Assembly (NCBI GenBank): GCA_945859605.1
Contig: OX243825.1
Span: 32,312,992 to 32,376,991, forward strand
Direction: 5' to 3'
Length of the DNA: 64,000 nt
Source: Lumbricus rubellus
Lineage: Eukaryota; Annelida; Clitellata; Crassiclitellata; Lumbricidae
Numbering within the stretch: the first letter of the stretch is position 1; each line of letters begins with the position of its first letter. Below, piece by piece: positions 7,401 through 60,760 of the stretch. Under the pieces are notes generated by a model. It saw only the letters and a list, made by a program, of their open reading frames with translations. It searched no databases and had not been told where the DNA came from. Both the position numbers and the translations under genes were made by a program.

Positions 7401-10400
7401 TTTATAAAGAAACAGTTGGAGATAAGTGCAATATATGTCACAGAAGGACTTCAGAAAACACTCAATGATTCATTCTGGACAACTATGCTATGTAATAAAG
7501 ATTTGTTTGAAGAGACCTACAATGAAAACTCATGAAATATTGCAAACTGGAGAAGAATCACATGAGTGCAATTTATGTGAAAAAGCTTTACAAGTAGTAC
7601 TTATCTAGGACAGCACATGAGAATACACACTGGAGAAAAACACTACAAGTGCAAAATAGTAAAACATTTATATGCTGCAGGCGCTGAACATAAATGCTGT
7701 TGTTGTCAATGCAATATATGCATCAAGGCTTTGTTTGAAAACAAATCTCCAATGAAGACTCATAAAAGAATTCAAACTGGAGAAAAAACAAATGAGTGCA
7801 ATTTATGTGGGAACACCTTTGCAGACAGATCTTATCTCAAAGAACACATCAGGATACACACCGGAGAAAAACCGTACAAGTGCAATTTATGTAGTAAAGC
7901 ATTTACACAGAGGGCGGGTTTGTATAGTCACAGAAGAATGCACACTGGCGAGAAACCATTTATATGCAATATATGTCACAGAGCATTTGCACGAAATACC
8001 ACTTTGGACTCACACAAAAGGACACACACTGGAGAAAAACCATTTAAGTGCAATATATGTCACAAAGCGTTTGTCAGCAAACAATGTATGCAGATCCATA
8101 CAAGAACTCATACCGGAGAGAAACCATTTGTTTGCAATATATGTGACAAAGCATTTTCGCAAAGCATTCCTCTCCGTGACCACAGAAGGACTCACACTGG
8201 TGAGAAACCATACTCTTGCAATTTATGTCACAAAGCATTTGTTCGTAGGGAGCAACTAATAAGTCACTCAAGTATCCACACTGGAGAAAAAGCTTACAAA
8301 TGCAATTTGTGTAACAAATCATATACACGATCATGTGGTCTGCTATACCATAAAAGAACCCACACTGGAGAAAAACCTTACAAATGCAATTTGTGTAACA
8401 AAGCATTTACTTATCTCTGTAACCAGCAACGCCATGAAAGTACCCACACTGGCGAAAAACCTTACAAATGTAGTTTGTGCGACAAATCATTTGCACAAGC
8501 CGATGGTCTGCAAAGCCATAAAAGAACCCACACTGGAGAAAAACCATACAAGTGCAGAACATGCAACAAAGCTTTTGCAGATCACAGTAGCCTGCGGATC
8601 CATAACAGCATCCACAGTGGATACAGACCATTCAAGTGCCACTTATGTAAAAAATCATTCACAAAACCTTCTATCCTGGCTGCTCATGCAAGATCTCACA
8701 CTGGTGAAAAGCCATACATGTGCAACATATGTGACAAAGCGTTTTCATATGGCCATACACTGAAAGTCCATATGAGAACTCATTCAGGAGAGAAACCCTA
8801 CATTTGCAATATTTGTGAGAACGCATTTTCTCATCAAATTCATCAAAATAACCACAGAAGAACGCACACTATTGAGAAACCATACCGTTGTAATATATGT
8901 CATACAACCTTTTCTCTCAAGGGACATTTGGATATTCACACCAGAGAAAAACCTTACAAATGCAATTTGTGTAACAAAGCATTTACTTCTGTCTGTAACC
9001 AGCAACGCCATGAAAGTACCCACACTGGCGAAAAACCTTACAAGTGTAGTTTGTGCGACAAATCATTTGCACAGGCCGATGGTCTGCAAAGCCATAGAAG
9101 AACCCACACTGGAGAAAAACCTTACAAGTGCAATTTATGTAGTAAACCATTTACACAGAGGGCGGGTTTGTATAGTCACAGAAGAACGCACACTGGCGAG
9201 AAACCATTTATATGCAATATATGTCACAGAGCATTTGCACGAAATACCACTTTGGACTCACACAAAAGGACGCACACTGGAGAAAAACCATTTAAGTGCA
9301 ATATATGTCACAAAGCGTTTGTCAGCAAACAATGTATGCAGATCCATACAAGAACTCATACCGGAGAGAAACCATTTGTTTGCAATATATGTGACAAAGC
9401 ATTTTCGCAAAGCATTCCTCTCCGTGACCACAGAAGGACTCACACTGGTGAGAAACCATACTCTTGCAATTTATGTCACAAAGCATTTGTTCGTAGGGAG
9501 CAACTAATAAGTCACTCAAGTATCCACACTGGAGAAAAAGCTTACAAATGCAATTTGTGTAACAAATCATATACACGATTATGTGGTCTGCTATATCATA
9601 AAAGAACCCACACTGGCGAAAAACCTTACAAATGTAGTTTGTGCAACAAATCATTTGCACAAGCCGATGGTCTGCAAAGCCATAAAAGAACCCACACTGG
9701 AGAAAAACCTTACAAGTGTAGTTTGTGCGACAAATCATTTGCACGAGCTGATGGTCTGCAAAGCCATAAAAGAACCCACACTGGAGAAAAACCGTACAAG
9801 TGCAGAACATGCAAGAAAGCTTTTGCAGATCGCAGCAGCCTGCGAATCCATAAAAGCATCCACAGTGGTGATAGACCATTCAAGTGCCACTTATGTAACA
9901 AATCATTCACAAAACCTTCTATACTGGCTGCTCATGCAAGATCTCACACTGGTGAAAAGCCATACATGTGCAACATATGTGACAAAGCATTTTCTCAGCA
10001 AACTCATCTATATCGTCACAGAAGAACGCACACTGGAGAGAAACCATACCTTTGTGATATATGTCATAGAACATTTTCTCTTAAGGAACAATTGAAAATT
10101 CACACAAGAATACACACAGGATTGAAGCCATACAAGTGCAAATTATGTCAAAGATTATTTGCTGAAAGTGGTCACCTCAGTAACCACATGAATACTCACA
10201 GTGAAAGATCGGCAAAAAAGAGTGAAATTTTTGATGAAAGTAGTTATCAAGGCACACATGTGAAAATTCGCAGCGTTGAAACATTGTTTGTGGAGGTATT
10301 GTGTCAAAGCAAGTTGTCGGAAAAGACGGAGAGATACGACGATACTGATACTAGTTCAGAGTTGTTAACAACGGAATCGAATCAAGTAGTTTTTTCCAAA

Positions 10401-10628
10401 CAGAGCAAGATATACAGTCCAGATGACAATAGAATGGATGCTGATCATTCGATAAGTACTGCTGATGGAAACTGTTTCATTTCCAGAACCCTTGGTTGCG
10501 GAGTGTGTGATAAAATGTTTGATATTGAAGAGGAACTAATGGAACATTGTAATCATCACTTCGAAAATCCGCCTGAAAGGAGTTTGGGGGAATTCTCTGA
10601 ATTGCGACTTTTAAACTACTTTCCTTGA
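7380..10628 (+). CDS. Polydactyl C2H2 zinc-finger protein, gene 1 (29 fingers, 5' frameshift)
   Basis: Long open frame from 7,617, with an earlier in-frame part at 7,426-7,608. Twenty-eight complete C2H2 fingers and one truncated finger follow TGEKPY/TGEKPF linkers, then an acidic tail and a last single finger ([10 protein letters not shown]...EHCNHH). Such proteins bind DNA in the nucleus; the target is unknown. No KRAB, SCAN or BTB domain is visible. A missing T near 7,588 (GCTTTACAAG instead of GCTTTTACAAG) breaks the frame after ECNLCEKA, so the 5' part is out of frame. The N-terminal THxxxQTGE block occurs twice. Fingers in 7.87-8.9 kb repeat at 9.12-10.0 kb with a constant 1,248-bp offset and few differences, and a finger truncated to HLDIHTREK (about 8,930-8,950) marks a joint. 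Confidence 0.85.
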
Positions 10629-15022: not shown

Positions 15023-16921
15023 TTAAGAAAAGTAGTCTAAAAGTTTCAATTCAAAGAATTCCTCAAAGCTGTTTCTTGGAGGATTGTCGAAATGATGATT
15101 GCAATGTTCCACAAATATCTCTTGAATATCAAACATTTCATCACACACTCCGCAACCATAGGTTCTGGAAATGAAATATTTTACATCGGCAGCACCTATC
15201 GAATAATCAGCGTCCATTGTATTGTCCTCTGGACTGGGTTTCTTGCAATGTTTAGATGAAACAACTTGATGCGATTCCATTGTTAACAACTCTGAACCAT
15301 CATCGTCGTATCTCTTCGTCTTCTCCAACATCTTGCATTCAGGTAATTCCTCCATGAATAATGTTTCTTCCCTGCGAATTTTAACCGTTGTGCCTCGAAA
15401 AATGCTGTCATCAGAAATCTTACCCTTTCTTGATGATCTTCCTCTGTGAGTATTCATGTGTTTTCTGAGATGACCACTTTGTGTAAATGATCTTTGACAT
15501 AATTTGCACTTGTATGGCTTTAATCCTGTGTGTGTTCTGGTGTGAATTTCCAAATTAACCTTAAGAGAAAAGGTTTTGTGACATAAATAACAAAGGTATG
15601 GTCTCTCTCCAGTGTGCAATCTTCTGTGGACATTTCGACTAGAAATTTGAGAAAATGCTTTGTCACAAATATTGCATATGTATGGTTTCTCTCCTGAATG
15701 AGTTCTCATATGGACATTCAGACTGTGACCATATGAAAATGCTTTGTCACACATGTTACACACATATGGCTTTTCTCCAGTGTGAGATCTTGTATGAACT
15801 TCCAATTTACAAGGTTGAGTAAACGATTTTTCGCATAAGTTGCACTTGAATGGTTTATCACCACTGTGGATAATTTGATGGGTTCGCAGGCTACCGACAT
15901 CTGCAAAAGCTTTGTTGCATTTACTGCATTTGTAACGTTTTTCTCCAGTGTGGATTCTTCTATGGACTTGCAGACCATCCGCTCGTGCAAATAATTTGTC
16001 ACACAAATTGCGTTTGAAAGCTTTTTCTCCAGTGTGGGTTCTTTTATGATATCGCAGACTACTTCCATGTCCATATTCTTTGTTACATATATTGCACTTG
16101 TAAGCTTTTTCTCCGGTGTGGACACTTGAGTGATCTTTTAGTTGCTGCCTACGAATAAAGGCTTTATGACATAAACTGCACGAGTATGGTTTCTCTCCAG
16201 TGTGGGTCCTTCTGTGGCCACGTAGATGAATACTTTGTGAAAATGCTTTGTCACATATATTGCAAATGAATGGTTTCTCTCCGGTATGAGATCTTGTATG
16301 GATACGCACATGTTGCTTGTTGGCAAACACTTTGTGACATATATTGCACATAAATGGTTTCTCTCCAGTGTGCGTTTTTCTATGTAAATCCAGATGATCA
16401 TTTCGTGTAAATGCTTTGTCACATATATTGCAAATGAATGGTTTCGCTCCGGTGTGAGTTCTTGTATGGATGCGTATACATTGTTTGTTGGCAAACACTT
16501 TGTGACATATATTGCACATAAATGGTTTCTCTCCAGTGTGCGTTTTTCTATGTAAATCCAGATGATCATTTCGTGCAAATGCTTTGTCACATACATTGCA
16601 CATGTATGGCTTCTCTCCGGTGTGAGTTCTAGTATGATTTCTCAGAGAACTTTTTTGTGAGAATTTTTTGTGACATAAATCGCATGTAAATGGTTTTTCC
16701 CCAGTGTCGGTTCTTAAGTGAATTTTCAATTCATCCCTATGAATAAAAGTTATGTGACACAAATCGCAAGAGTGTGGTTTCTCACATAAATTGCACTCAT
16801 GTGAGTCTTCTCCGGTTTGCACTCCTTCATGAGTTTTCATTGTTGATCTGTTCAAAGAACGCTTTATAACATCAATTGCACCTGCAGATCGCTGTCCATT
16901 GAGTGTATTTTGAAGTCGCAA
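15023..16921 (-). CDS. Polydactyl C2H2 zinc-finger protein, gene 2 (16 fingers)
   Basis: Open frame of about 632 codons with 16 C2H2 units joined by TGEKPY-type linkers, an acidic Ser-rich tail and the family C-terminal finger ([10 protein letters not shown]...[11 protein letters not shown]). It is expected to be a nuclear DNA-binding protein with no extra domain visible. Two fingers have lost a zinc ligand: the first (HLRTD, second His to Asp) and the tenth (FKRNLC, first Cys to Arg). An in-frame deletion fuses ECNLCEK directly to PHSCDLC, removing fingers kept in the other copies. The frame opens at a TTG; the first ATG is in [10 protein letters not shown] leader reading [17 protein letters not shown] lies upstream in another frame (about 16,875-16,975), so splicing or a frameshift separates them. 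Confidence 0.82.
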
Positions 16922-17017
16922 GTATCTTCAAATGTTTCTTTGTAAAATTCACCTTCAAATGTTTGTCTGGTCATCCTCACGATGGTGAGACTGAGCGAAG
17001 AAGCACAAGCGAAACAA

Positions 17018-30205: not shown

Positions 30206-32062
30206 TTAAGACAAGTAGTCTAAAAGTTTCAATTCAAAGAAATCCTCAAAGCTGTTTCTAGGCGGATTGTCGAAATGATGATTGCAATGTTCCACAAATA
30301 TCTCTTGAATATCAAACATTTCATCACACACTCCACAACCAAAGGTTCTGGAAATGAAATATTTTACATTAGCAGCACCTATCGAATGATCAGCGTCCAT
30401 TGTATTGTCCTCTGGACTGGACTTCTTGCTCTGTTCAGAAGAAACTAATTCCTTCATGAATAATGTTTCTTCCTTGCGAAGTTTAACCTGGGTGCTTTGA
30501 CAAATACTCTCATGAAAAATCTCACGTTTTCTTGCCGATCCTCCACTGTGACTATTCATGTGCCTTCTGAGATTACCCTTTTGTGCAAATGATCTTTGAC
30601 ATAATTTGCAATTGTATGGCTTTAATCCTGTGTGTGTACTTGTGTGAATTTTCAAATTACTCTTAAGAGTAAATGTTCTGTGACATATATTACAACGGTA
30701 TGGTCTCTCTCCAGTGTGCGTTCTTCTGTGGCCATTAAGATTAGAAATTTGAGAAAATGTTTTGTCACAAATTTTGCAAATGTAGGGTTTTTCTCCTGAA
30801 TGAGTTCTCAAATGGACATTCAGACTGTGCCCGTATGAAAATCCTTTGTGACACAAGTAGCACATGTATGGCTTTTCTCCAGTGTGACTTCTTGTGTGGA
30901 TATCCAGTTTACAAGGTTGAGTGAAAGATTTCTCGCAAAAGCTGCACTTGAATGGTATATCACCACTGTGAATACGTTTATGGATTCGCAGGCTATCGCC
31001 ATCTGCAAAGGCTTTCTTGCAAGTTCTGCATTTGTAAGATTTTTCACTAGTGTGGTTTCTTCTATGGGTTTGCAGACCATTCGCTCGTGCAAATGATTTG
31101 TCACACAAATTGCATTTGTAAGGTTTGACTACAGTGTGTGTTTTTTCATGTGTTTGCAGGCCACCCTCTTTTGCAAATCCCTTGTTACATAAATTGCATT
31201 TGTACGGTTTTTCATATTGTTCTCCAGCGTGGGTCCTTTTATGATATCGCAAGCCACTTCCATGGGCATACGCTTTGTTACACATATTGCACTTGTAAGC
31301 TTTTTCTCCAGTGTGGATACTTGAGTGACTTTTTAATTGCTGCCTATCAATAAAGGCTTCGTGACATATATTGCAGGAGTATGGTTTCTCTCCAGTGTGA
31401 GTCCTTCTGTGACCAGCCAGATTAGATCCTTGAGAAAATGCTTTGCCACATATATTGCAAACGAAAGGTTTTTCTCCGGTATGAGTTCTTGTGTGGACAC
31501 GCAAAATTATTTTGCTGGCAAACGCTTTGTGACATATGTTACACATAACTGGTTTCTCTCCAGTGTGCGTTCTTTTGTGCAATTCCAGAGTGGTATTTCG
31601 TGCAAATGCTCTGTCACATATATTGCACATGTACGGTTTCTCTCCAGTATGAGTTTTTGTATGAGATCTCAGTTGACCTCTATCTGAAAAACCTTTGTGA
31701 CATAAATCACATGTGTATGGCCTTTCTCCATGCGATGTTGAGTGAGTTTTCAGTTCATGCTTATGAATAAAAGCTTTTTGACACAAATTGCAATAGTGTG
31801 GTTTCCCTCCAGTGTGAGTTTTTTTGTGGCTATACAAACCAGCACAATGTGTAAATGTTTTACTACATAATTTGCACTTGTAGCGTTTCTCTCCAGTGTG
31901 TATTCTCGTGTGTTGCCTTAGATAAGCACTGCTTGCAAAAGATTTTTCACACACATTGCACTTATGTGATTCTCTTCCAGTTTGTAATCTTCCATGAATT
32001 TTCATTGTAGACCAAAGCTTTACCACATAAAATGCACGTGTAGAATTAGGATCGTTGTCCAT
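30206..32062 (-). CDS. Polydactyl C2H2 zinc-finger protein, gene 3 (17 fingers)
   Basis: About 618 codons from ATG at 32,062, with 17 C2H2 fingers, acidic tail and the conserved C-terminal finger ([12 protein letters not shown]...[11 protein letters not shown]). All zinc ligands in the array are present. Two linkers are odd: HGER after finger 3 (one residue short) and HAGEQYEKPYK after finger 9 (three residues longer). The first unit (KIHGRLQTGRE) has Gln where the second His should be. Upstream on the same strand the sequence reads TFEGEFSKETFGDS, then an IHS.THYGQRS stretch ending at a TAA, then CILCGKAL, so the real amino terminus probably depends on splicing or has decayed. It is likely a nuclear DNA-binding protein; no effector domain is seen. 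Confidence 0.85.
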   Translation of the reverse strand: MDNDPNSTRAFYVVKLWSTMKIHGRLQTGRESHKCNVCEKSFASSAYLRQHTRIHTGEKRYKCKLCSKTFTHCAGLYSHKKTHTGGKPHYCNLCQKAFIHKHELKTHSTSHGERPYTCDLCHKGFSDRGQLRSHTKTHTGEKPYMCNICDRAFARNTTLELHKRTHTGEKPVMCNICHKAFASKIILRVHTRTHTGEKPFVCNICGKAFSQGSNLAGHRRTHTGEKPYSCNICHEAFIDRQQLKSHSSIHTGEKAYKCNMCNKAYAHGSGLRYHKRTHAGEQYEKPYKCNLCNKGFAKEGGLQTHEKTHTVVKPYKCNLCDKSFARANGLQTHRRNHTSEKSYKCRTCKKAFADGDSLRIHKRIHSGDIPFKCSFCEKSFTQPCKLDIHTRSHTGEKPYMCYLCHKGFSYGHSLNVHLRTHSGEKPYICKICDKTFSQISNLNGHRRTHTGERPYRCNICHRTFTLKSNLKIHTSTHTGLKPYNCKLCQRSFAQKGNLRRHMNSHSGGSARKREIFHESICQSTQVKLRKEETLFMKELVSSEQSKKSSPEDNTMDADHSIGAANVKYFISRTFGCGVCDEMFDIQEIFVEHCNHHFDNPPRNSFEDFFELKLLDYLS

Positions 32063-32149
32063 AATGAGTCTTTGAGTGTATTTTGAAGTTCAAACTATCT
32101 CCAAATGTTTCTTTTGAAAATTCACCTTCAAATGTTTGTCCTCCTCACG

Positions 32150-38796: not shown

Positions 38797-41289
38797 TTAA
38801 GGAAAGTAGCCTATAAGTCGCAATTCAAAGAATTCCCCTAAACTGTTTTTAGGCGGATTTTCGAAATGATGACTGCAATGTTCCATAAATACCTCTTGAA
38901 TATCAAACATTTCATCACACACTCCGCAACCATAGGTTCTGGAAATGAAATATTTTACATCTGCAGTAAACAACGAATGATCAGTGTCAATTCTATTGTC
39001 ATCTGGACAGGGTTTCTTGTTTTGTGTAGAAGAAACGACATGATTCAATTCCATTATTAACAACTCTGAACCATTATCATCGGATATATTGGTCTTGTCC
39101 AACAATGTGTATTGACGTAATTTCTCCACGAATAATGTTTCTTCCCCATGAATTTTTACTTGGGTGCCTTGACGAATACTTTCATCAAAGATCTCACCCT
39201 GTTTTGCCAATCCTCCGGTGTGAGTATTCATGTGCTTTGTGAGATGATTACTCTGTGCAAATGATCTTTCACATAATTTGCACTTGTATGGCTTCATTCC
39301 AGTGTGTATTCTTGTGTGAATTTCCAATTGTCCCTTACGAGAAAAGGTTCTATGACATAAATTACAAAGGTATGGTTTATCTCTAGTGTGCGTTCTTTTG
39401 TGACGATTTAGATGATCTTTTGAAGAAAATGCTTTGTCACATATGTTGCACATGTATGGCTTTTCTCCAGTGTGACATCTCATATGAACATCCAGTTTAT
39501 AAGGTTGTGTAAATGATTTTTCACATAAGCGGCACTTGAATGGTTTTTCACCCGTGTGTATACTTTGATGGCATCGCAGGTTACTCAGTTCCGCAAATGC
39601 TTTGTTGCATGTATTGCATTTGTAAGGTTTTTCTCCAGTGTGGGTTCTTCTGTGGATCTGAAGAATACTTCCCCGTGCAAATGATTTGTCACAAAAATTA
39701 CATATGTAAGGCTTTTCACCAGTGTGGGTTCTTTCATGGGTTTTCAGACTACTCCCTTTCGTAAATGACATGTTACACAAATTGCATTTGTAATGTTTTT
39801 CATCTTTTTCTCCAGTGTGGGTTCTTTTATGATATTGCAGGCCACTTCCATGGGCATATGCTTTGTTACATACATTACATTTGTAAGCTTTTTCTCCAGT
39901 GTGGATACTTGAGTGACTTTTTAATTGCTGCCTACAAATAAAGGATTTTTCACATAAATTGCAGGAGTATGGTTTCTCACCAGTGTGAATCCTTTTGTGG
40001 CCATGCAGATGAGTACTTTGCGAAAATGCTTTGTCACAAATATTGCAAACAAAAGGTTTCTCTCCAGTATGAGTTTTTGTATGGATACGCAAAATTGTTT
40101 TGTTGGCAAATGCTTTGTGACATATATTGCAATTAAATGGTTTCTCTCCAGTGTGCGTCCTTCTGTGTAAGTCCAGAGTGGTATTTCGTGCAAATGCTAT
40201 GTTACATATATTGCATATGAATGGTTTCTCCCCAGTGTGAGTTTTTGTATGGGATCTCAGTTGATTTTTATCTGAAAAACCTATGTGACATAAATTGCAT
40301 GTGTACGGTTTTTCTCCAGTGTGGGATCTTGAGTGAAGTTTCAATTCGTGGCTATGAGTAAAAGCTTTGTGACACAAATTGCAAGAGTGTGGTTTCTCTC
40401 CAGTGTGGATCCTTTTGTGACCAGTCAGATTAGAACTTTGCGAAAATGCTTTGCCACATATATTACAAATGTATGGTTTCTCTCCGGAATGAGTTCTTGT
40501 ATGGATATCCAGACACTTTTTATTGGTAAATGCTTTGTGACATGTGTTGCATTTATATGGTTTCTCTCCAGTGTGGGTTCTTCCATGAACAATCAGAGTG
40601 TATTTATCTGCAAATGTTTTGTGACATATATTGCAAATGAAGGGTTTCTCTCTGGTGTGAGTTTTCATATGTCTTTTCAAATTACCTGCATCTGAAAATG
40701 TTTTGTGACATACATTGCACATGTATGGTTTCTTTCCAGTGTGGGTTCTTTCATGTAAATTGAGTCTTCTTTTATGTGAAAAAGTTTTGTCACATATATT
40801 GCAAATGTAGGGCTTCTCTCCAGTATGAGCTGTTATATGGATATCCAGACTTCTTTTTTCAGAAAATGCTTTATGGCATATACTGCACACATATGGTTTA
40901 TCTCCACTGTGCATCCTTCCATGAACATTCAGATAACCTTTATGCGCAAATGCTTTGTCACATATATTGCAAATGTATGGTTTCTCTCTGGTATGAGTTT
41001 TCGTATGGCTATCCAGTTGTCTTTTATCAGCAAATGTTTTGTGGCAAGTATTGCAAGCATATCGTTTCTCTCCGGTGTGAGTTCTTCTGTGGCTATACAA
41101 ACCAGCTCTATGTGTAAATGTTTTATCACATAAATTGCACTTGTAGCGTCTTTCTCCAGTGTGTATTCTGATGTGTTCTCTTAGATAAGTATTGCTTGTA
41201 AAGACATTTCCACATAAATTACATTCGTGTGATTTTTCTCCAGTTTGTAGTCTTTCATGAGTTTTCATTGTAAATCTGTTTTCAAACAA
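38797..41289 (-). CDS. Polydactyl C2H2 zinc-finger protein, gene 4 (24 fingers)
   Basis: The longest undamaged array: 24 C2H2 fingers with TGEKPY linkers over about 700 residues, an acidic tail, and the family finger [19 protein letters not shown] see no lost zinc ligand in the array. The open frame begins at a TTG; the first ATG is about 41,268 (TMKTHERLQ). Upstream in the same frame an extra unit reads CYRCNLCNKALFENRF and is preceded by a TGA, with CTACAG just before it as a possible splice acceptor. The leader sequence kept by genes 2 and 3 is reduced and the TATA segment is not recognisable, so expression is uncertain although the protein part is the best kept. A three-residue linker insertion (HTGEKDEKHYK) follows finger 17, at the same place as in gene 3. 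Confidence 0.87.
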   Translation of the reverse strand: MFENRFTMKTHERLQTGEKSHECNLCGNVFTSNTYLREHIRIHTGERRYKCNLCDKTFTHRAGLYSHRRTHTGEKRYACNTCHKTFADKRQLDSHTKTHTREKPYICNICDKAFAHKGYLNVHGRMHSGDKPYVCSICHKAFSEKRSLDIHITAHTGEKPYICNICDKTFSHKRRLNLHERTHTGKKPYMCNVCHKTFSDAGNLKRHMKTHTREKPFICNICHKTFADKYTLIVHGRTHTGEKPYKCNTCHKAFTNKKCLDIHTRTHSGEKPYICNICGKAFSQSSNLTGHKRIHTGEKPHSCNLCHKAFTHSHELKLHSRSHTGEKPYTCNLCHIGFSDKNQLRSHTKTHTGEKPFICNICNIAFARNTTLDLHRRTHTGEKPFNCNICHKAFANKTILRIHTKTHTGEKPFVCNICDKAFSQSTHLHGHKRIHTGEKPYSCNLCEKSFICRQQLKSHSSIHTGEKAYKCNVCNKAYAHGSGLQYHKRTHTGEKDEKHYKCNLCNMSFTKGSSLKTHERTHTGEKPYICNFCDKSFARGSILQIHRRTHTGEKPYKCNTCNKAFAELSNLRCHQSIHTGEKPFKCRLCEKSFTQPYKLDVHMRCHTGEKPYMCNICDKAFSSKDHLNRHKRTHTRDKPYLCNLCHRTFSRKGQLEIHTRIHTGMKPYKCKLCERSFAQSNHLTKHMNTHTGGLAKQGEIFDESIRQGTQVKIHGEETLFVEKLRQYTLLDKTNISDDNGSELLIMELNHVVSSTQNKKPCPDDNRIDTDHSLFTADVKYFISRTYGCGVCDEMFDIQEVFMEHCSHHFENPPKNSLGEFFELRLIGYFP

Positions 41290-41473
41290 AGCTTTATTAC
41301 ATAAATTACACCTGTAGCATCAGAATAGTTGTCCAGAAAGAGTCCTTGAGTGTATTCTGAAGTCGCAACTACTCCTGTTCACAAAATTTACCATCAAGTA
41401 GTCTTTTGTAATGGTGAGTTGCCACTTGCAACTGATATCAAATAAAATAAAATATAAAATAAATAAATTTAGT

Positions 41474-47696: not shown

Positions 47697-48387
47697 GTCA
47701 CAGAGGGGGAACGGACATTATCCCCCCTGGACATTATCCCCCCGGACATTATCCCCCCGGACATTATCTTCCTCGGTTTTTCGTAGGACATTATCCCTCC
47801 GGACATTATCCCCCCTTCATGTACAAATCAGGGTAAGCGTCGTGAGGGTCGGTTAGGGTCAGGTTAAGCGTCGTGAGGGTCGGTTAGGGTCAGTGTAAGC
47901 GTCGTGAGGTTCGGTTAGGGTCAGTGTAAGTGTCGTGAGGGTCGGTTAGGGTCAGTGTAAGCGTCGTGAGGGTCGGTTAGGGTCAGTGTAAGCGTCGTGA
48001 GGGTCGGTTAGGGTCAGTGTAAGCGTCGTGAGGTTCGGTTAGGGTCAGTGTAAGTGTCTTGAGGGTCGGTTAGGGTCAGTTTAAGCGTCGTGAGGGTCGG
48101 TTAGGGTCAGTGTAAGCGTCGTGAGGGTCGGTTAGGGTCAGTGTAAGCGTCGTGAGGGTCGGTTAGGGATAGTTTTAGGGTTAGTGTCGTCATTAGATGG
48201 ATGAACGAATTGGAATTGTATACAGTCAGTAGGCCCACAAAGGTTTGTTAACGTGATTTGAACTTCGTAGACTTATTAGCGTCAATCATTTTTAGGTAAT
48301 AGACTGGGGGATAATGTCCTACTTCGGGGGGGATAATGTCCGGGGGGATAATGTCCAGGGGGATAATGTCCCACAACCGTCACAGGG
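47697..48387. mobile_element. C/G-run foldback element 47,706-48,378 with an 11-unit telomere-like array
   Basis: Starts GGGGAACGGACATTATCCCC, ends GGGGATAATGTCCCACAACC. GTCACAGAG (47,697-47,705) and GTCACAGGG (48,379-48,387) differ at one base. The core at about 47,832-48,165 is eleven 31-bp units, TCGGTTAGGGTCAGTG followed by TAAGCGTCGTGAGGG. Confidence 0.85.
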
Positions 48388-48450: not shown

Positions 48451-48862
48451 AGGTGTAAAGGTTTCAAATTACCCCCTTCTAAACATTACCCCCCCTGCAA
48501 ACGGTAATTTGCACCAATCATCGCATTTATTGCAATAAAAATATCAGAAAAATCATACGGCTTCTTGTTGTGGTCCCTCATCCCACTTCGTGGTATGTTA
48601 TCAATTTTTTATCCAAAAAATAATAGCCTCGAAGCCATTTCTCCATTGTAATTTCAGAGGGGATTTGGGCTACTATTTTAGTTACAGATGAAAATATTGA
48701 TAACAAACTACGAAGTGGGATGACGGATGAAAATCTTCAGACCAAAACAAGAAGCGACATTTTCTGATATTTTTAGTGCAATAAATGCGATGATTGATGT
48801 AAATTACAGTTTGCACGGGGGGCAATGTTTAGGAAGGGGTAATTTGAAACCTTTACGCTTGG
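48451..48862. mobile_element. Palindromic element, copy 6, at the 3' end of the peptide gene
   Basis: Same structure as copy 1, ends AGGTGTAAAGGTTTC / GAAACCTTTACGCTTGG. It supplies the stop codon (48,804) of the open frame from the minus-strand exon next to it. Confidence 0.75.
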
Positions 48863-50953
48863 TGGGCCTACAACAGCTAGGCCTACTTATTTTTATAACG
48901 TAAAGTGAAGCAATGCAAGTTATTGTTAGCAAAACCCCCATTTCAAGAGACCTCTTGCTTCCTAATGGCCAATTGCATGCCCAGTTCCCGCAAGGAGCAC
49001 GCTTTTCGGACTCTGCTTCACTAGCGACCGGAACGTTTTCATCGGATCTTTTGATATCATGACCATCGTCAGCGACGTCATCCTTGTGGCAGGTTATACC
49101 TAGCAAATAAATAATTGTTCTGTAAGGTAGCCTAAGGTCAATAACTGCATAGTTTGTGAACAACATCAATAATAGTAAAATTATCAAAAAATAACTGAAG
49201 CGATATCGACTGTTATTAAAAAATAAAAATAACGAGAATTGTTTTACTACTATTAGTAGGCCTAGTGGTGGTGGTGGTGGTGGTGGTGGTGGTGGTGGTG
49301 GTGGTGGTGGTGGTGGTGGTGGTGGTGGTGTGGCAGCAGTAGCAGCAGCAGCAGTAGTAGTAGGCCTAGAGTGACTAGCCAAAAGTCGTCAGAATTTTCG
49401 GCCGAAGATCCGCAACAAATTTCCCGAACAGGGCCCCACATTTCTTAATCCGGCCCTGCAAATGTCAAATTCGGCGACCGAATTTATCCTGCACCTCGTA
49501 TATAGGGTTACCATAAGTGCTCAGGTGAAAAAGAGGACACATAAAATGTTCATCCGGTTATCATCTCGTAGCGCGCTCCAAAATATGTACATGGCTTCAT
49601 AGTGCTACACCAATGTCAAGTGTTGTACAAAAAACCCCATTAAACTACACAAAATATGTACATGGTTTCAACTTAAACATTATTGAGTGAGTGCTCAGTA
49701 CTTCAGTTCAGTACACATTACATAACTGTCAGTCTGTCACTCTCTGTACACAGAAACAAAACAGTGAATTCCTACTAACGTACTTACTTACTTACCATAC
49801 ACTGCACTTGGGGCTCAGCCCCAAAACTGATGGCCTTTAACAAGTTAGGCTGGCTGCTGAGAAAACGCTTTCAGTGCGTCTGTAAATAAACACTTTCGTT
49901 TCGGCATTTTTTATGTCAATGTTTTAGTAAATTTGAAAAATTAGATTATTTTATTTACCATTATCATTATGTACATTGTACAGTGTACCTCAAAGATTTT
50001 AACAGGGAGGTGCCTAACGTTATATTTATGCGTTAAAAACCCACCTCAGGGACCGGAAGTCTATTGGTACCCATACCATTGACCTAAATATTGCTGGAAC
50101 GCGCATTTAATTCACAGAACAGAAGCCTAGAGAATAGTATAATAACACGGAAAAGACTTACTTTTCCGAAATGTAAGTAAGATCGATCGATCGGGGCACA
50201 TGCGGGGAAAACCGGACAAAGCCATATTTCTCGAAAGCTCCCCGGACGCCCCGGACAGGGGCCAAAAAAGAGGACATGTCCGGGGAAACCCGGACGCATG
50301 GTAACCCTACTCGTATACGTAGGAAGCCGGAGAAGTCCCTATTCGTGTAGGCCTATTTCCACAAGGCAAAATGGAAGCGACAAAACCATTACTGAATGTT
50401 AGGCCTATGTCATAATTTCGCAGTCGGTTAAATTAAAATATGTTCTACCACTTTTACAGTATTGTGTAATAAGTTTGGGAATGCCTGCAAGAAGGCGTCG
50501 CATAAAATAGCAGTTAGGCTACATTACAACCATCTAAGACTTAGCAGCAATCATTTTAGTCTTATAATTATAAAATTCATGAAGAATTTGTCTTACCGGG
50601 AGCTAACTGGCTAACCAGCAGAATGCAAATGCAAAGTATGGTCACTTTTCTGATCTGAAATTTGACAGTTTAAGCTTATGCATGTATATTGTGATGAATT
50701 TTTGAATCTGTGTTAGAATCATTTTGCTACTTTAAGCGATGGAAGAAAACAAATTGGATGAGTGATGCAGGATAGAGCATGAAAATGTGTTTAAACAGTT
50801 ACATAGCCATGTAGGCCTATCTTTCTCCTATGTTAGCCTATAATTTATATGATCATGGAGAAAAATTGAGCTGAGCCGTTTGTCTATGATACGGTATAGA
50901 TTTCAAAACTTGCATCTGTTAGAAAACAGTGCTAACCATCGCTGTCTTACCAT
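48804..50953 (-). CDS. Candidate neuropeptide/peptide-hormone precursor, 3 exons
   Basis: Exon 1 ends with ATG at 50,953-50,951, directly before donor GTAAGACAGC; an in-frame TGA lies upstream with no other in-frame ATG between. Exon 2 (50,654-50,597) has acceptor AAATTTCAG and donor CCCG|GTAAGA. With the ATG it reads MIRKVTILCICILLVSQLA, a clear signal peptide (Lys/Arg start, hydrophobic core). Exon 3 starts at 49,099 after TTTGCTAG, exactly in phase. It encodes an acidic propeptide (DDVADDGHDIKR, SDENVPVASEAESEKR), then APCGNWACNWPLGS and KR. Cleavage at Lys-Arg (residues 37-38, 53-54, 69-70) would free a 14-residue peptide with one Cys pair. After residue 70 come SLEMG, a hydrophobic run and residues from the palindromic repeat, so the true 3' end may be altered. 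A small type I membrane protein is an alternative. Confidence 0.6.
49266..49331. repeat. (GGT)n microsatellite
   Basis: About 21 GGT units, in the intron of the peptide gene; antisense frames read as polyproline. Confidence 0.95.
49495..50317. mobile_element. hAT-like element 49,503-50,309, TSD CTCGTATA
   Basis: Ends TAGGGTTACCATA / CATGGTAACCCTA, with AAAAAGAGGACA inward on both sides. CTCGTATA is exact at 49,495-49,502 and 50,310-50,317. No transposase. It lies in the long intron of the peptide gene. Confidence 0.85.
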
Positions 50954-51000
50954 CTTCAGCGATCTTCTCACTTCTTCGGCTGTGTCAATGATCGGCTCTT

Positions 51001-51074
51001 CATCGCTTCAGCCAAGACTCGCATCGCCTTTTATAGCAATTCATTGGCCCGTGGCGAAGCAGCCAGCGTGACGT
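51001..51074 (-). promoter_or_regulatory. Promoter of the peptide gene (CRE half-site, CCAAT, TATA)
   Basis: On the minus strand, ACGTCA (51,074-51,069), CCAAT (51,047-51,043) and TATAAAAG (51,035-51,028) precede exon 1 (about 51,003-50,951). TATA-to-start spacing would be about 25-30 bp. A short out-of-frame upstream ORF (ATGAAGAGCCGATC..TGA) may lie in the leader. Confidence 0.5.
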
Positions 51075-51322
51075 TGTTGCCGTAAATTATCTGATATTGC
51101 TTGAAAAAAAAGCAGCTGGAACGCATGACGAATCGATATTCTGCTCTTGCATTTGATTGTGCATAAATCAATCATGCATTGGTTATTGCTTTCTCTCCAG
51201 CGGAGTTCACGTTAGACCTAAAGAGAATGATAAATTATCCTTAAAAATCTGTCGTCCGATGGCATTTTTATTACATTATAATTAATTTAGGCCTATGTTC
51301 AGATCTAAACAGTTGACACATC
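51075..51322. other. Unclassified DNA upstream of the peptide gene
   Basis: No recognised repeat or exon. Confidence 0.4.
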
Positions 51323-58072: not shown

Positions 58073-60133
58073 TTACGGAAAGTAGTCTAAAAGTCGCAAT
58101 TCAAAGAATTCATCAAAGCTGTTTTTAGTAGGATTTTCTGAGTGATGATTAAAATGTTCCATAAATAGCTCATGATTATCAAACATTTCATTGCACACTC
58201 CACAACCATGAGTTCTGGAAGTGAAATCTTCTACATCAGCAGCCCATAACAATTGATCGGAATCCATTCTATTTTCAACCACCCTTGACCCCTTGCTCTG
58301 TTTAGAAGAAATTACTTGATGCGATTTAATTGCCAACAACTCTGAACCATCATCATCGTATTTCCTGGTCTTATCCAACAACGTGCTTTGACAAAATTTC
58401 GCCATGAATAATGTTTCTTCCTTGCGAATTTTCACCGTGGTGTCTTGACGAATACCGCCATAGGAAATCTCACGTTTTCTTGCCGATCCTCCACTGTGAG
58501 TATTCATGTGTCTTCTGAGATTACTGCTTTGTACAAATGATCTTTGACATAAATTGAATTTGTATGGCTTTAATCCTGTGTGTGTTCTTTTGTGAATTTC
58601 AAATTTATTCCTAAAAGAAAAGGTTCTATGACATAAATTACAAAGGTATGGTCTCTCTCCAGTGTGTGTTTTTCTGTGGACATTTAGATGATTTATTTGA
58701 GAAAATGCTTTGTCACAAACATTGCAAATGTAGGGTTTCTCTCCTGAATGAGTTCTCATATGTACTTTCAGATTGCCACCATGTGAATATGCTTTGTGAC
58801 ACATGTAGCATATGTATGGCTTTTCTCCAGTGTGATACCTTGTGTGAATGTCCAGTTTACAAGGTTGAGTGAATGACTTTTCACATAAGTTGCACTTGTA
58901 TGGTTTATCACCACTGTGCATTTTTTTATGGATTCGCAGGCTACCGTGATCTACAAAAGCTTTGTTGCATGTTATACACTTGTATGTTTTTTCTCCAGTG
59001 TGGGTTCTTCTATGGACTTGCAGAGCATCCACTCGTGCAAATGATCTGTCACACAAATTACAGTGGTAAGGTTTTTCTCCAGTGTGGGTTCTTTTATGGC
59101 GCCGCAGGCCACTTTCATGTCCATATTCTTTGTTACACATATTGCACTTGTAAGCTTTTTCTCCAGTGTGGATACTTGAGTGATCGTTTAGTTGCTGCTT
59201 ACGAATAAAGGATTTGTGACATAAATTGCAAGAGTATGGTTTCTGTCCAGTGTGGGTCTTTTTGTGCCGTACCAGAGTAGAACTTTGCGAAAATGCTTTG
59301 CCACATATAATGCAAACAAATGGTTTCTCTCCAGTGTGGGTTTTTCTGTGGCCATGTATAGTGTTTTGAGAAAATGCTTTGTTACATATATTGCAAATGT
59401 AAGGCTTCTCTCCGGTATGAGTTCTTGTATGGATACGCAAATATATTTTTTTGGCAAACGCTTTGTGACATATATTGCACATAAATGGTTTCTCTCCAGT
59501 GTGCGTTCTTTTGTGTAAATCCAGACAATCATTTCGTGTAAATGCTTTGTCACATACATCGCACATGTATGGCTTCTCTCCAGTATGAATTCTTGTATGC
59601 TTTCTCAGAGAACTTTTGTGTGAGAAATTTTTGTGACATAAATTACACGTGAATGGTCTTTCTCCAGTGTGGGTTCTTAAGTGAATTTTCATTTTACGAC
59701 TATGAAAAAAAGCTTTGTCACACAAATCGCAAGAGTGTGGTTTCTCTCCAATGTGAATCCTTTTGTGAGCAGCCAGATTAGATCCTCGGGAAAATGATTT
59801 GCCACATATTTTGCAAATGTAAGGTTTCTCTCCAGTGTGCGTCCTTCTGTGTGAATCCAGACTGCCACTTTGTGCAAATGCTCTCTGACATATATTGCAC
59901 ACAAACGGTTTCTCCCCAGTGTGGATTCTTCTGTGGCTATTCAAAGAGGCTCCCTGTGTAAATGTTTTACTACATAAATTGCACTTGTAGCGTCTTTCTC
60001 CAGTGTGTATTCTGTTGTGCTGTCTTAGATAATTACTGCTTGTAAAGGCTTTTCCACATAAATTGCATCCATGTGTTTTTTCTCCAGTTTGTATTCCTTC
60101 ATGAGATTTCATTGTAGATCTGTTTTCAAACAA
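58073..60133 (-). CDS. Polydactyl C2H2 zinc-finger protein, gene 5 (19 fingers)
   Basis: About 686 codons, 19 C2H2 units with TGEKPY linkers, an acidic tail and the family C-terminal finger (GCGVCNEMFD...EHFNHH). The last finger of the array has Phe for its first Cys (YKFNLC), and finger 9 is one residue short (SQNTIHGH), so both may fold poorly. The frame opens at TTG; the first ATG is in TMKSHEGIQ. Just upstream a degenerate unit reads YNLFGDALFENRS, in which both zinc cysteines have been lost, after a leader of the type CDLTIHSITHSGR. Best read as a nuclear DNA-binding protein gene that is ageing slightly. Confidence 0.85.
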   Translation of the reverse strand: MFENRSTMKSHEGIQTGEKTHGCNLCGKAFTSSNYLRQHNRIHTGERRYKCNLCSKTFTQGASLNSHRRIHTGEKPFVCNICQRAFAQSGSLDSHRRTHTGEKPYICKICGKSFSRGSNLAAHKRIHIGEKPHSCDLCDKAFFHSRKMKIHLRTHTGERPFTCNLCHKNFSHKSSLRKHTRIHTGEKPYMCDVCDKAFTRNDCLDLHKRTHTGEKPFMCNICHKAFAKKIYLRIHTRTHTGEKPYICNICNKAFSQNTIHGHRKTHTGEKPFVCIICGKAFSQSSTLVRHKKTHTGQKPYSCNLCHKSFIRKQQLNDHSSIHTGEKAYKCNMCNKEYGHESGLRRHKRTHTGEKPYHCNLCDRSFARVDALQVHRRTHTGEKTYKCITCNKAFVDHGSLRIHKKMHSGDKPYKCNLCEKSFTQPCKLDIHTRYHTGEKPYICYMCHKAYSHGGNLKVHMRTHSGEKPYICNVCDKAFSQINHLNVHRKTHTGERPYLCNLCHRTFSFRNKFEIHKRTHTGLKPYKFNLCQRSFVQSSNLRRHMNTHSGGSARKREISYGGIRQDTTVKIRKEETLFMAKFCQSTLLDKTRKYDDDGSELLAIKSHQVISSKQSKGSRVVENRMDSDQLLWAADVEDFTSRTHGCGVCNEMFDNHELFMEHFNHHSENPTKNSFDEFFELRLLDYFP

Positions 60134-60760
60134 AGCATCACCAAATAAATTGTACTCTTACCATTGGAATCATCGTCCAGAATGAGTTATTGAGTGTATT
60201 GTTAAGTCGCAACTATCTCCAAATGTGACTTTATAAAATTCACATTCAAGCAGTGTTTTATTATGATGAGTTGCCACTTGCAACTGATATCTAATAAAAT
60301 AAAATAAAATTTATTTATAATCATTGAAGGAGAGAATACATTTCACAATGCACTTTGTCTAATTTCACTAAATATGTAACAAATAGTAAACATTACCACA
60401 CAACATCATTTAAATAATGATGAAAGTTCTGGCAACCTAGGATAATGTAGGTCAACTCATGAGGATTTGAAGTCCAAATGTTTGTCTAGTCATCTTCATA
60501 ATGGTAAGGTTGAATGAAGAAAGAAGCACAAGCGGAACAATAATTTCATACCATGGCATATACTAAGTCGTCGCATACAGCTAGCAGGCTTTATATAAAA
60601 TGCGTTTGGGTCCAACGACTGCTTAAGTCCGATCATGTCCTAGGGTTGGCAATAGTCATGGATGACTGACTTTATTAAACTTGGGGAGACCTCTATGGAA
60701 AGAGGGTTTTTCTATTTAAGGACTAGTCTTAGTGGATGCTAAGGAAAGACTTTGATGTCA
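60134..60760 (-). promoter_or_regulatory. Leader and promoter region of zinc-finger gene 5
   Basis: The minus strand has TTTATATAAAGCCTGCTAGC (TATA at about 60,600-60,590), then ACTTAGTATATGCCATGG near the probable start, and ATGACTAGACAAACATTTG (about 60,506-60,488). Between that ATG and TGTGAATTTTATAAAG (about 60,230) lie ~250 bp absent from genes 2 and 3, a possible intron. The outer 250 bp match the promoter of gene 3. Confidence 0.55.

What the first reader, a model, noticed from the sequence alone, without database searches (positions are those of the whole stretch)
48804..51074. Unrecognised secreted-peptide precursor gene hidden in repeats (minus strand)
Seen directly: TATAAAAG and CCAAT, an ATG lying exactly on a GTAAGA donor, a 58-nt exon with AG/GTAAGA borders that reads as a signal peptide once joined to that ATG, and a third exon that continues in the same phase. 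The third exon has three Lys-Arg sites in an acidic propeptide around APCGNWACNWPLGS, with one Cys pair. Three independent splice-phase agreements plus a signal peptide are unlikely by chance. Knowledge: this layout is standard for neuropeptide precursors. Inference: a 14-residue disulfide peptide would be released. I do not recognise the family; the GSKR end does not give a standard amide.
Basis: partly seen in the sequence, partly recalled or inferred. Interest (0 to 1): 0.88.

Follow-up and report, generated by a model that had tools for sequence, protein, structure and literature searches.

The report
Earthworm family of variable secreted peptides
The spotted gene is real and belongs to a small earthworm gene family that keeps the same secretion leader but gives members different short two-cysteine peptides, a pattern better known from fast-evolving defence and venom peptides than from neurohormones.

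Summary
The host is not an echinoderm; the assembly matches the earthworm Lumbricus rubellus. The precursor is a signal peptide, an acidic pro-region with Lys-Arg sites, then APCGNWACNWPLGS-KR. Between six members (15 pairs) mean DNA identity is 0.87 in the signal exon, 0.79 in the pro-region, 0.78 in alignable intron-2 windows, but 0.59 in the mature segment, equal to shuffled sequence (0.58). Yet 8 of 9 members keep two cysteines, with loops of 4, 8 or 11 residues. That suggests diversifying secreted peptides rather than one hormone with one receptor. 'Secreted-peptide precursor' is supported; 'neuropeptide' is unproven; 'echinoderm' is wrong. The window copy lacks the stop used by its sister copy, so its frame runs into former 3' UTR and a repeat; the third KR would remove that tail. 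No transcript, peptide or function could be tested, and relatives outside this genome could not be searched.

The parts
51068..51075 (-). CRE-like AACGTCAC (motif name recalled)
   Evidence: AACGTCA in 11 of 13 aligned promoter rows
51043..51047 (-). CCAAT box
   Evidence: sequence; not in all paralogues
51028..51035 (-). TATA box TATAAAAG
   Evidence: TATAAAA in 12 of 13 aligned rows
50951..51005 (-). exon 1 (5' end inferred from TATA distance), ends in the start codon ATG 50953-50951 on the donor GTAAGA
   Evidence: donor GTAAGAC in 11 of 12 readable of 13 rows; ATG in 9 of those 11
50655..50950 (-). intron 1; its 3' part carries a stretch similar in all 10 members
50597..50654 (-). exon 2, 58 nt, signal peptide
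   Evidence: 10 signal-peptide exons found in the genome; aligned; hydrophobic core KD 2.7-3.8 over 11 residues in 9 models
49100..50596 (-). intron 2, 1497 nt, phase 1
48804..49099 (-). exon 3 coding part as read in this copy, including the extension past the point where C18b stops
49047..49052 (-). Lys-Arg site 1
   Evidence: sequence; KR in 7 of 9 models, KT in 2
49005..49046 (-). acidic spacer SDENVPVASEAESE
   Evidence: pro-region found at 9 places genome-wide
48999..49004 (-). Lys-Arg site 2, before the mature peptide
   Evidence: KR or RR in 9 of 9 models
48957..48998 (-). predicted mature peptide APCGNWACNWPLGS, one disulfide (inferred)
   Evidence: one match of the CGNWACNW coding pattern in the genome; two cysteines in 8 of 9 models
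48951..48956 (-). Lys-Arg site 3 (AAGAGG; Gln-Arg in the two C18 sister copies)
48942..48944 (-). GAA where C18b has its stop TAA (C18c also GAA; TAA is the stop used there in C18b and C6c, other members stop earlier)
48887..48941 (-). conserved stretch that is 3' UTR in most members, read through in this copy
48455..48856 (.). inverted, multi-copy repeat that supplies the last codons and the stop of the open frame

Best explanation
The gene is one of a family of about ten in the earthworm Lumbricus rubellus. A TATA promoter with a CRE-like site drives a short transcript. Exons 1 and 2 give the start codon and signal peptide; exon 3 gives a pro-region with an acidic spacer bounded by dibasic sites, followed by the mature peptide. 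In the secretory pathway the signal peptide is removed, prohormone-convertase-type enzymes cut at Lys-Arg, basic residues are trimmed, and a 14-residue peptide APCGNWACNWPLGS closed by one Cys-Cys bridge is released; the read-through tail is cut off at the third KR. Leader, pro-region, 3' stretch and introns stay alike between copies while the mature peptide is rewritten, keeping only the cysteine pair. So the family most likely supplies different short cyclic peptides to a fast-changing outside target (defence against microbes or parasites, deterrence, or chemical recognition between worms) rather than one hormone to one receptor. Shown: gene family, exon structure, hypervariable mature segment. 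Inferred: expression, processing, disulfide, selection as the cause, and the outward role (about 0.5 on its own).
For: Exon-3 DNA has paralogues at seven other loci, an eighth found by profile (C6d); promoter and exon-2 DNA likewise; 10 signal-peptide exons, 9 pro-regions. Gene models with the same exon phases in 9 of 9. Mature segments: APCGNWACNWPLGS, APCGNWACTWPEGS (two copies), QFCPNRNCWGFWSPHPPGG, KPRCGKDFSERMCRD, NQHDCKHANCWEHVSSL, KLSCSGSGKKTKCTWS, AIQCASKTYNLSTGKCATKGYKRGRTGRSSTDGKDMQG; the ninth (C6d) is short and has no Cys. Mean DNA identity over 15 pairs of six members: signal exon 0.867, pro-region 0.786, mature 0.591, shuffled mature 0.580 (sd 0.055); intron-2 windows 0.776 (n=130), of which 1 falls at or below the mature value of its own pair. 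Chance of exactly two Cys in six mature types taken as random codons about 3e-7 (leaves out C6d and ignores common descent). PMC10501145 (passages) contrasts conserved leader plus hypervariable mature part in toxins with conserved mature part in signalling peptides.
Against: No RNA or peptide data could be used. Leader plus pro-region shows dN/dS about 0.95 over 36 pairs of 9 members, so no purifying selection at protein level; the family could be weakly constrained. Between the window gene and C18b the mature part is no faster than the rest (42 of 46 aligned bases identical against 93 of 101 in the pro-region). As broken alignments the contrast is weaker: the alignment breaks at the mature part in 9 of 15 pairs, a hit spans it fully in 6, and 15 breaks fall elsewhere. 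My first intron null took in intron 1, exon 1 and promoter where intron 1 is short: mean 0.770, 10 of 224 windows at or below the mature value of their pair and 32 of 224 at or below the highest mature value; for intron 2 alone 15 of 130. All windows come from alignable blocks, which favours the contrast. C6d lacks cysteines in the mature part; C6e has no third exon within 12.7 kb. Dibasic sites and an acidic spacer suit a neuropeptide precursor, and two members (C6a, C10b) end in Gly before the stop, a possible amide donor.
Confidence: 0.72

Rival explanations
1. A lineage-specific neuropeptide or peptide-hormone family: the mature peptides act inside the worm on receptors that co-evolve, or several paralogues have been freed from constraint.
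For: Signal peptide, acidic spacer and Lys-Arg bounded two-cysteine peptide are the usual neuropeptide-precursor layout; CRE-like plus TATA promoter; starfish and sea-cucumber precursors with CxxxxC peptides are described as putative neuropeptides (PMC4772807 passages; PMC6586643 section 30); two members end in Gly.
Against: The mature part is less conserved than intron 2 between paralogues; loop size varies 4, 8, 11; no glycine for amidation in the window peptide.
Confidence: 0.25
2. A decaying, functionless gene family: the genes were duplicated with introns, lost constraint, and the mature part drifted by insertions and deletions.
For: dN/dS about 0.95 in leader plus pro-region; the window copy lost the stop of its sister; C6d lacks cysteines; C6e, the two C8 loci and one C10 place are partial; a hit spans the mature part in 6 of 15 pairs.
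Against: Frames open through signal and pro-region in 9 of 9; exon 2 differs only by a multiple of three (58 or 76 nt); two cysteines kept in 8 of 9; drift at the intron-2 rate would leave about 78% identity, not shuffled-level identity.
Confidence: 0.12
3. The first reader's gene model is a chance assembly of unrelated ORFs and splice-like sites in repeats.
For: The 3' end of the open frame lies in a multi-copy repeat.
Against: Same exons, borders and phases in paralogues on C18, C6 and C10, same promoter also on C8.
Confidence: 0.02

Closest known systems
Starfish Arnp22/Arnp23 (PMC4772807, passages) and sea-cucumber Ajnp23 (PMC6586643, section 30), putative neuropeptide precursors
   Same: Signal peptide, dibasic sites, peptide with two cysteines four residues apart, no amidation signal described; an acidic spacer is described for Ajnp23
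   Different: Other phylum; starfish peptides end in RGW, ours do not; their full letters are not in the text that I read, so no alignment was made
Annelid excitatory peptides / GGNG peptides (EP/CCHamide; PMC6617912, passages)
   Same: Short annelid peptide with one Cys pair; W and A inside the loop (recalled for GGNG)
   Different: EP usually follows the signal peptide directly and is amidated; ours follows a pro-region and the window peptide is not; GGNG end absent
Vasopressin/oxytocin type (annetocin; PMC7181382, passages)
   Same: Four residues between the cysteines and a PLG after the second one
   Different: No neurophysin at this locus; the seven neurophysin places found lie elsewhere; no Gly before KR; NW stands before PLG
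Conotoxin superfamilies, as a mode of evolution (PMC10501145 passages and one section; PMC4278219 passages)
   Same: Conserved signal and spacer, hypervariable mature peptide after a basic site
   Different: Earthworm, one disulfide only, about ten genes, no venom gland known to me; no sequence relation tested
Annelid antimicrobial peptides (lumbricins, macins; PMC6780910, passages)
   Same: Small secreted annelid peptides
   Different: Lumbricins are proline-rich, not built on one Cys pair; macins have disulfide arrays; no Pfam family over its cut-off for 6 of the 9 members tested

Membership tests
[quoted passage not shown]
   Basic n-region and 11-residue core with KD 2.7-3.8 in 9 models; no SignalP available
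Secreted, dibasic-processed peptide precursor (general) | Dibasic site directly before the mature peptide | tested here: met
   KR or RR in 9 of 9
Secreted, dibasic-processed peptide precursor (general) | Released peptide found by mass spectrometry | not testable with these tools
   Predicted disulfide form 1472.597 Da monoisotopic
Classical neuropeptide family | Mature peptide more conserved than its spacers | tested here: not met
   Mature 0.591 against pro-region 0.786 over 15 pairs; paralogues only, orthologues not testable
Vasopressin/oxytocin type | Neurophysin domain in the precursor | tested here: not met
   7 neurophysin places found in the genome, none at this locus
Vasopressin/oxytocin type | CxxxxCPxG-amide | tested here: not met
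   CGNWACNWPLGS-KR
EP/GGNG/CCHamide | Peptide directly after the signal peptide, C-terminal amide | tested here: not met
   33-residue pro-region between, and no Gly before KR in the window peptide
Fast-diversifying secreted peptide family (conotoxin-like mode) | Conserved leader with hypervariable mature part | tested here: met
   weaker by the alignment-break measure
Fast-diversifying secreted peptide family (conotoxin-like mode) | Codon-level positive selection in the mature part | tested here: inconclusive
   Too few changes among the three C18 copies; the others do not align
Conotoxins as a family | Sequence homology and venom-gland expression | not tested
   No homology claimed
Known Pfam family | Match over the curated cut-off | tested here: not met
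   Window protein and 5 of the 8 other full members: none over cut-off; 3 members not scanned

The most novel reading that the evidence does not exclude
An earthworm runs a conotoxin-style diversification system: about ten dispersed genes share one promoter, leader and 3' stretch, and each lineage carries a freshly rewritten one-disulfide loop, kept diverse by selection against changing microbes, parasites or predators, or for recognition between individuals.
Probability: 0.4. Interest if true: 0.7.

Novelty: new member of a known kind. Interest (0 to 1): 0.5.

Why it matters
If expressed, this is a compact natural series in which the leader and gene scaffold are held and the mature loop changes (loop sizes 4, 8, 11), in an animal with a chromosome-level genome. 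It makes a direct test possible of what drives such diversification outside venoms. It also shows that short secreted-peptide genes can sit in repeat-rich DNA and be found from raw sequence.

Tried and rejected
Genes for CFVRNCPTG (annetocin of Eisenia in PMC7181382) and the chromosome lengths then pointed to Lumbricus rubellus.

Text searches for the peptide letters: 'CGNWACNW' 0 papers; 'CGNW' with echinoderm and neuropeptide 0; six pieces of 5-6 letters 16 papers, 14 listed, off-topic by title and abstract, none opened. Topic searches. Absence in print rests on these alone, and supplements and figures were not searched.

Solved structures: none for the window precursor. Rfam over the window: none at gathering score. 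Third exon of C6e and bodies of the two C8 promoter loci: not found in 12.7, 16.7 and 17.2 kb downstream; the C6d exon found none for C6e genome-wide. Global alignments with long insertions gave unusable numbers, so I used block-wise identity and, on checking, repeated it with intron 2 alone. A pattern search for a GGNG gene elsewhere did not complete. Structure prediction was not run (short, probably disordered precursor).

Full report
What was claimed and what is there. The joined frame starts at the ATG 50953-50951, continues through the 58-nt exon 50654-50597 and the third exon from 49099, and reads MIRKVTILCICILLVSQLAPG ITCHKDDVADDGHDI KR SDENVPVASEAESE KR APCGNWACNWPLGS KR SLEMGV....

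Which organism. The window lies in a 787,420,884-base assembly of 368 contigs, on contig C18. A published genome of Lumbricus rubellus spans 787.5 Mb in 380 scaffolds, with chromosomes of 49.16, 41.37, 39.25 and 33.54 Mb among its 18 (PMC11015115, passages). Contigs C6, C8, C10 and C18 here are 49.15, 41.36, 39.25 and 33.54 Mb. Contig count and total differ slightly, so the match is very close, not exact. Two vasopressin/oxytocin-type genes here encode CFVRNCPTG, which PMC7181382 lists as annetocin of the earthworm Eisenia (passages). The echinoderm assumption is therefore wrong.

It is a family. Exon-3 DNA matches itself plus seven other loci on C18, C6 and C10; an eighth, C6d, came by profile. 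Promoter, exon 1 and exon 2 match these and further places on C6, C8 and C10. A search with another member's exon 2 gives 10 places, a search with the pro-region 9; the tool calls such counts lower bounds. The nine full models share exon phases; exon 2 is 58 nt in 8 of 10 and 76 nt in 2. In the promoter alignment of 13 rows, TATAAAA is in 12 and AACGTCA in 11; the exon-1 donor GTAAGAC is in 11 of the 12 readable rows. The tree is star-like except for the three C18 copies.

What varies. The mature segments are APCGNWACNWPLGS (window), APCGNWACTWPEGS (two C18 copies), QFCPNRNCWGFWSPHPPGG (C6a), KPRCGKDFSERMCRD (C6b), NQHDCKHANCWEHVSSL (C6c), KLSCSGSGKKTKCTWS (C10a), AIQCASKTYNLSTGKCATKGYKRGRTGRSSTDGKDMQG (C10b), and one short segment without cysteine (C6d). 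Loops between the cysteines are 4, 8 or 11 residues and net charge runs from -1 to +6 over the six types. For six members (C18b, C18c and C6d of the nine left out, 15 pairs) mean identity is 0.867 in exon 2, 0.786 in the pro-region and 0.591 in the mature segment, against 0.580 after shuffling. Alignable windows of intron 2 average 0.776; 1 of 130 falls at or below the mature value of its own pair, 15 of 130 at or below the highest mature value of any pair. An earlier null that also took in intron 1 and, where that is short, exon 1 and promoter gave 0.770, with 10 of 224 and 32 of 224. The conserved 3' stretch is 0.858 over 25 pairs (C6d and the within-C18 pairs left out). So the mature segment has changed faster than intron 2 while the cysteine pair was kept. 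Diversifying selection is an inference from this; a direct codon test was not possible.

Results that weaken this. Leader plus pro-region has dN/dS near 0.95 (36 pairs). Between the window gene and C18b the mature segment is no faster than the rest. Alignment breaks occur at the mature part in 9 of 15 pairs, a hit spans it in 6, and 15 breaks fall elsewhere. Windows were taken from alignable blocks. Several places are partial.

The window copy. TAA in TCTCTTTAA is the stop of C18b and C6c; C6a, C6b, C10a and C10b stop earlier at TGA, C6d earlier at TAA; the window copy and C18c read GAA there. In the window the frame therefore runs through what is 3' UTR in most members and ends in an inverted, multi-copy repeat at 48455-48856. 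The third KR, present here (AAGAGG) but Gln-Arg in the two C18 sisters, would remove the tail. The exon-2 ATG of seven members is ATC in the three C18 copies, so there the ATG on the exon-1 donor supplies the start in frame with the signal peptide.

How it most likely works. A secretory precursor, cut at Lys-Arg, releases a short peptide closed by one disulfide; family members release different peptides. The outward role (defence or recognition) is my best guess at about even odds; a neurohormone role is the main rival, and two members (C6a, C10b) end in a Gly that could serve for an amide. No Pfam family fits over cut-off for the six of nine members scanned, no solved structure matches the window precursor, and the protein database was off, so relatives in other species remain unsearched.

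Comparison. It resembles starfish Arnp22/23 and sea-cucumber Ajnp23 in layout, but those belong to another phylum and their full letters were not readable. It fails defining features of vasopressin/oxytocin (no neurophysin) and of EP/GGNG peptides (position and amide; features from PMC6617912 passages). Its mode of change is that described for conotoxins (PMC10501145 passages), without any claim of kinship.

Noticed in passing
L041, L042, L043, L044 (C18:1.41 Mb, C1:47.5 Mb, C5:13.18 and 20.18 Mb): Several vasopressin/oxytocin-type genes in one earthworm: CFMADCPRG, CIVHNCPVG and CFVRNCPTG twice, each upstream of a neurophysin stretch; 7 neurophysin places found, 4 read.
   Followed up: partly
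window 7581-10625 (+), 38800-41319 (-), 58076-60157 (-), 15026-16927 (-), 30209-32089 (-): Five long open frames; the first three show HTGE linkers in the printed part and look like C2H2 zinc-finger repeats, the other two similar but weaker, suggesting a zinc-finger cluster around the peptide gene (by eye, no profile run).
   Followed up: no
window 50730-50760, intron 1, 76-106 nt upstream of exon 2: CATCCAATTTGTTTTCTTCCATCGCTTAAAG is closely similar in all 10 aligned members although intronic; possible regulatory or splicing element.
   Followed up: no
L039:2870-3100 and L040:6898-7073: The family's promoter and exon-1 sequence stands at two C8 loci with no recognisable exon 2 or 3 within about 17 kb.
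   Followed up: partly
3' ends of C6a, C6b, C6c, C6d, C10a, C10b (L031, L032, L033, L037, L034, L036): The conserved 3' stretch runs into a trinucleotide microsatellite, mostly (TAA)n, (TGA)n in C10a, in six of nine members.
   Followed up: no
window 47828-48168: 31-base unit in 11 tandem copies just beyond the gene's 3' side.
   Followed up: no
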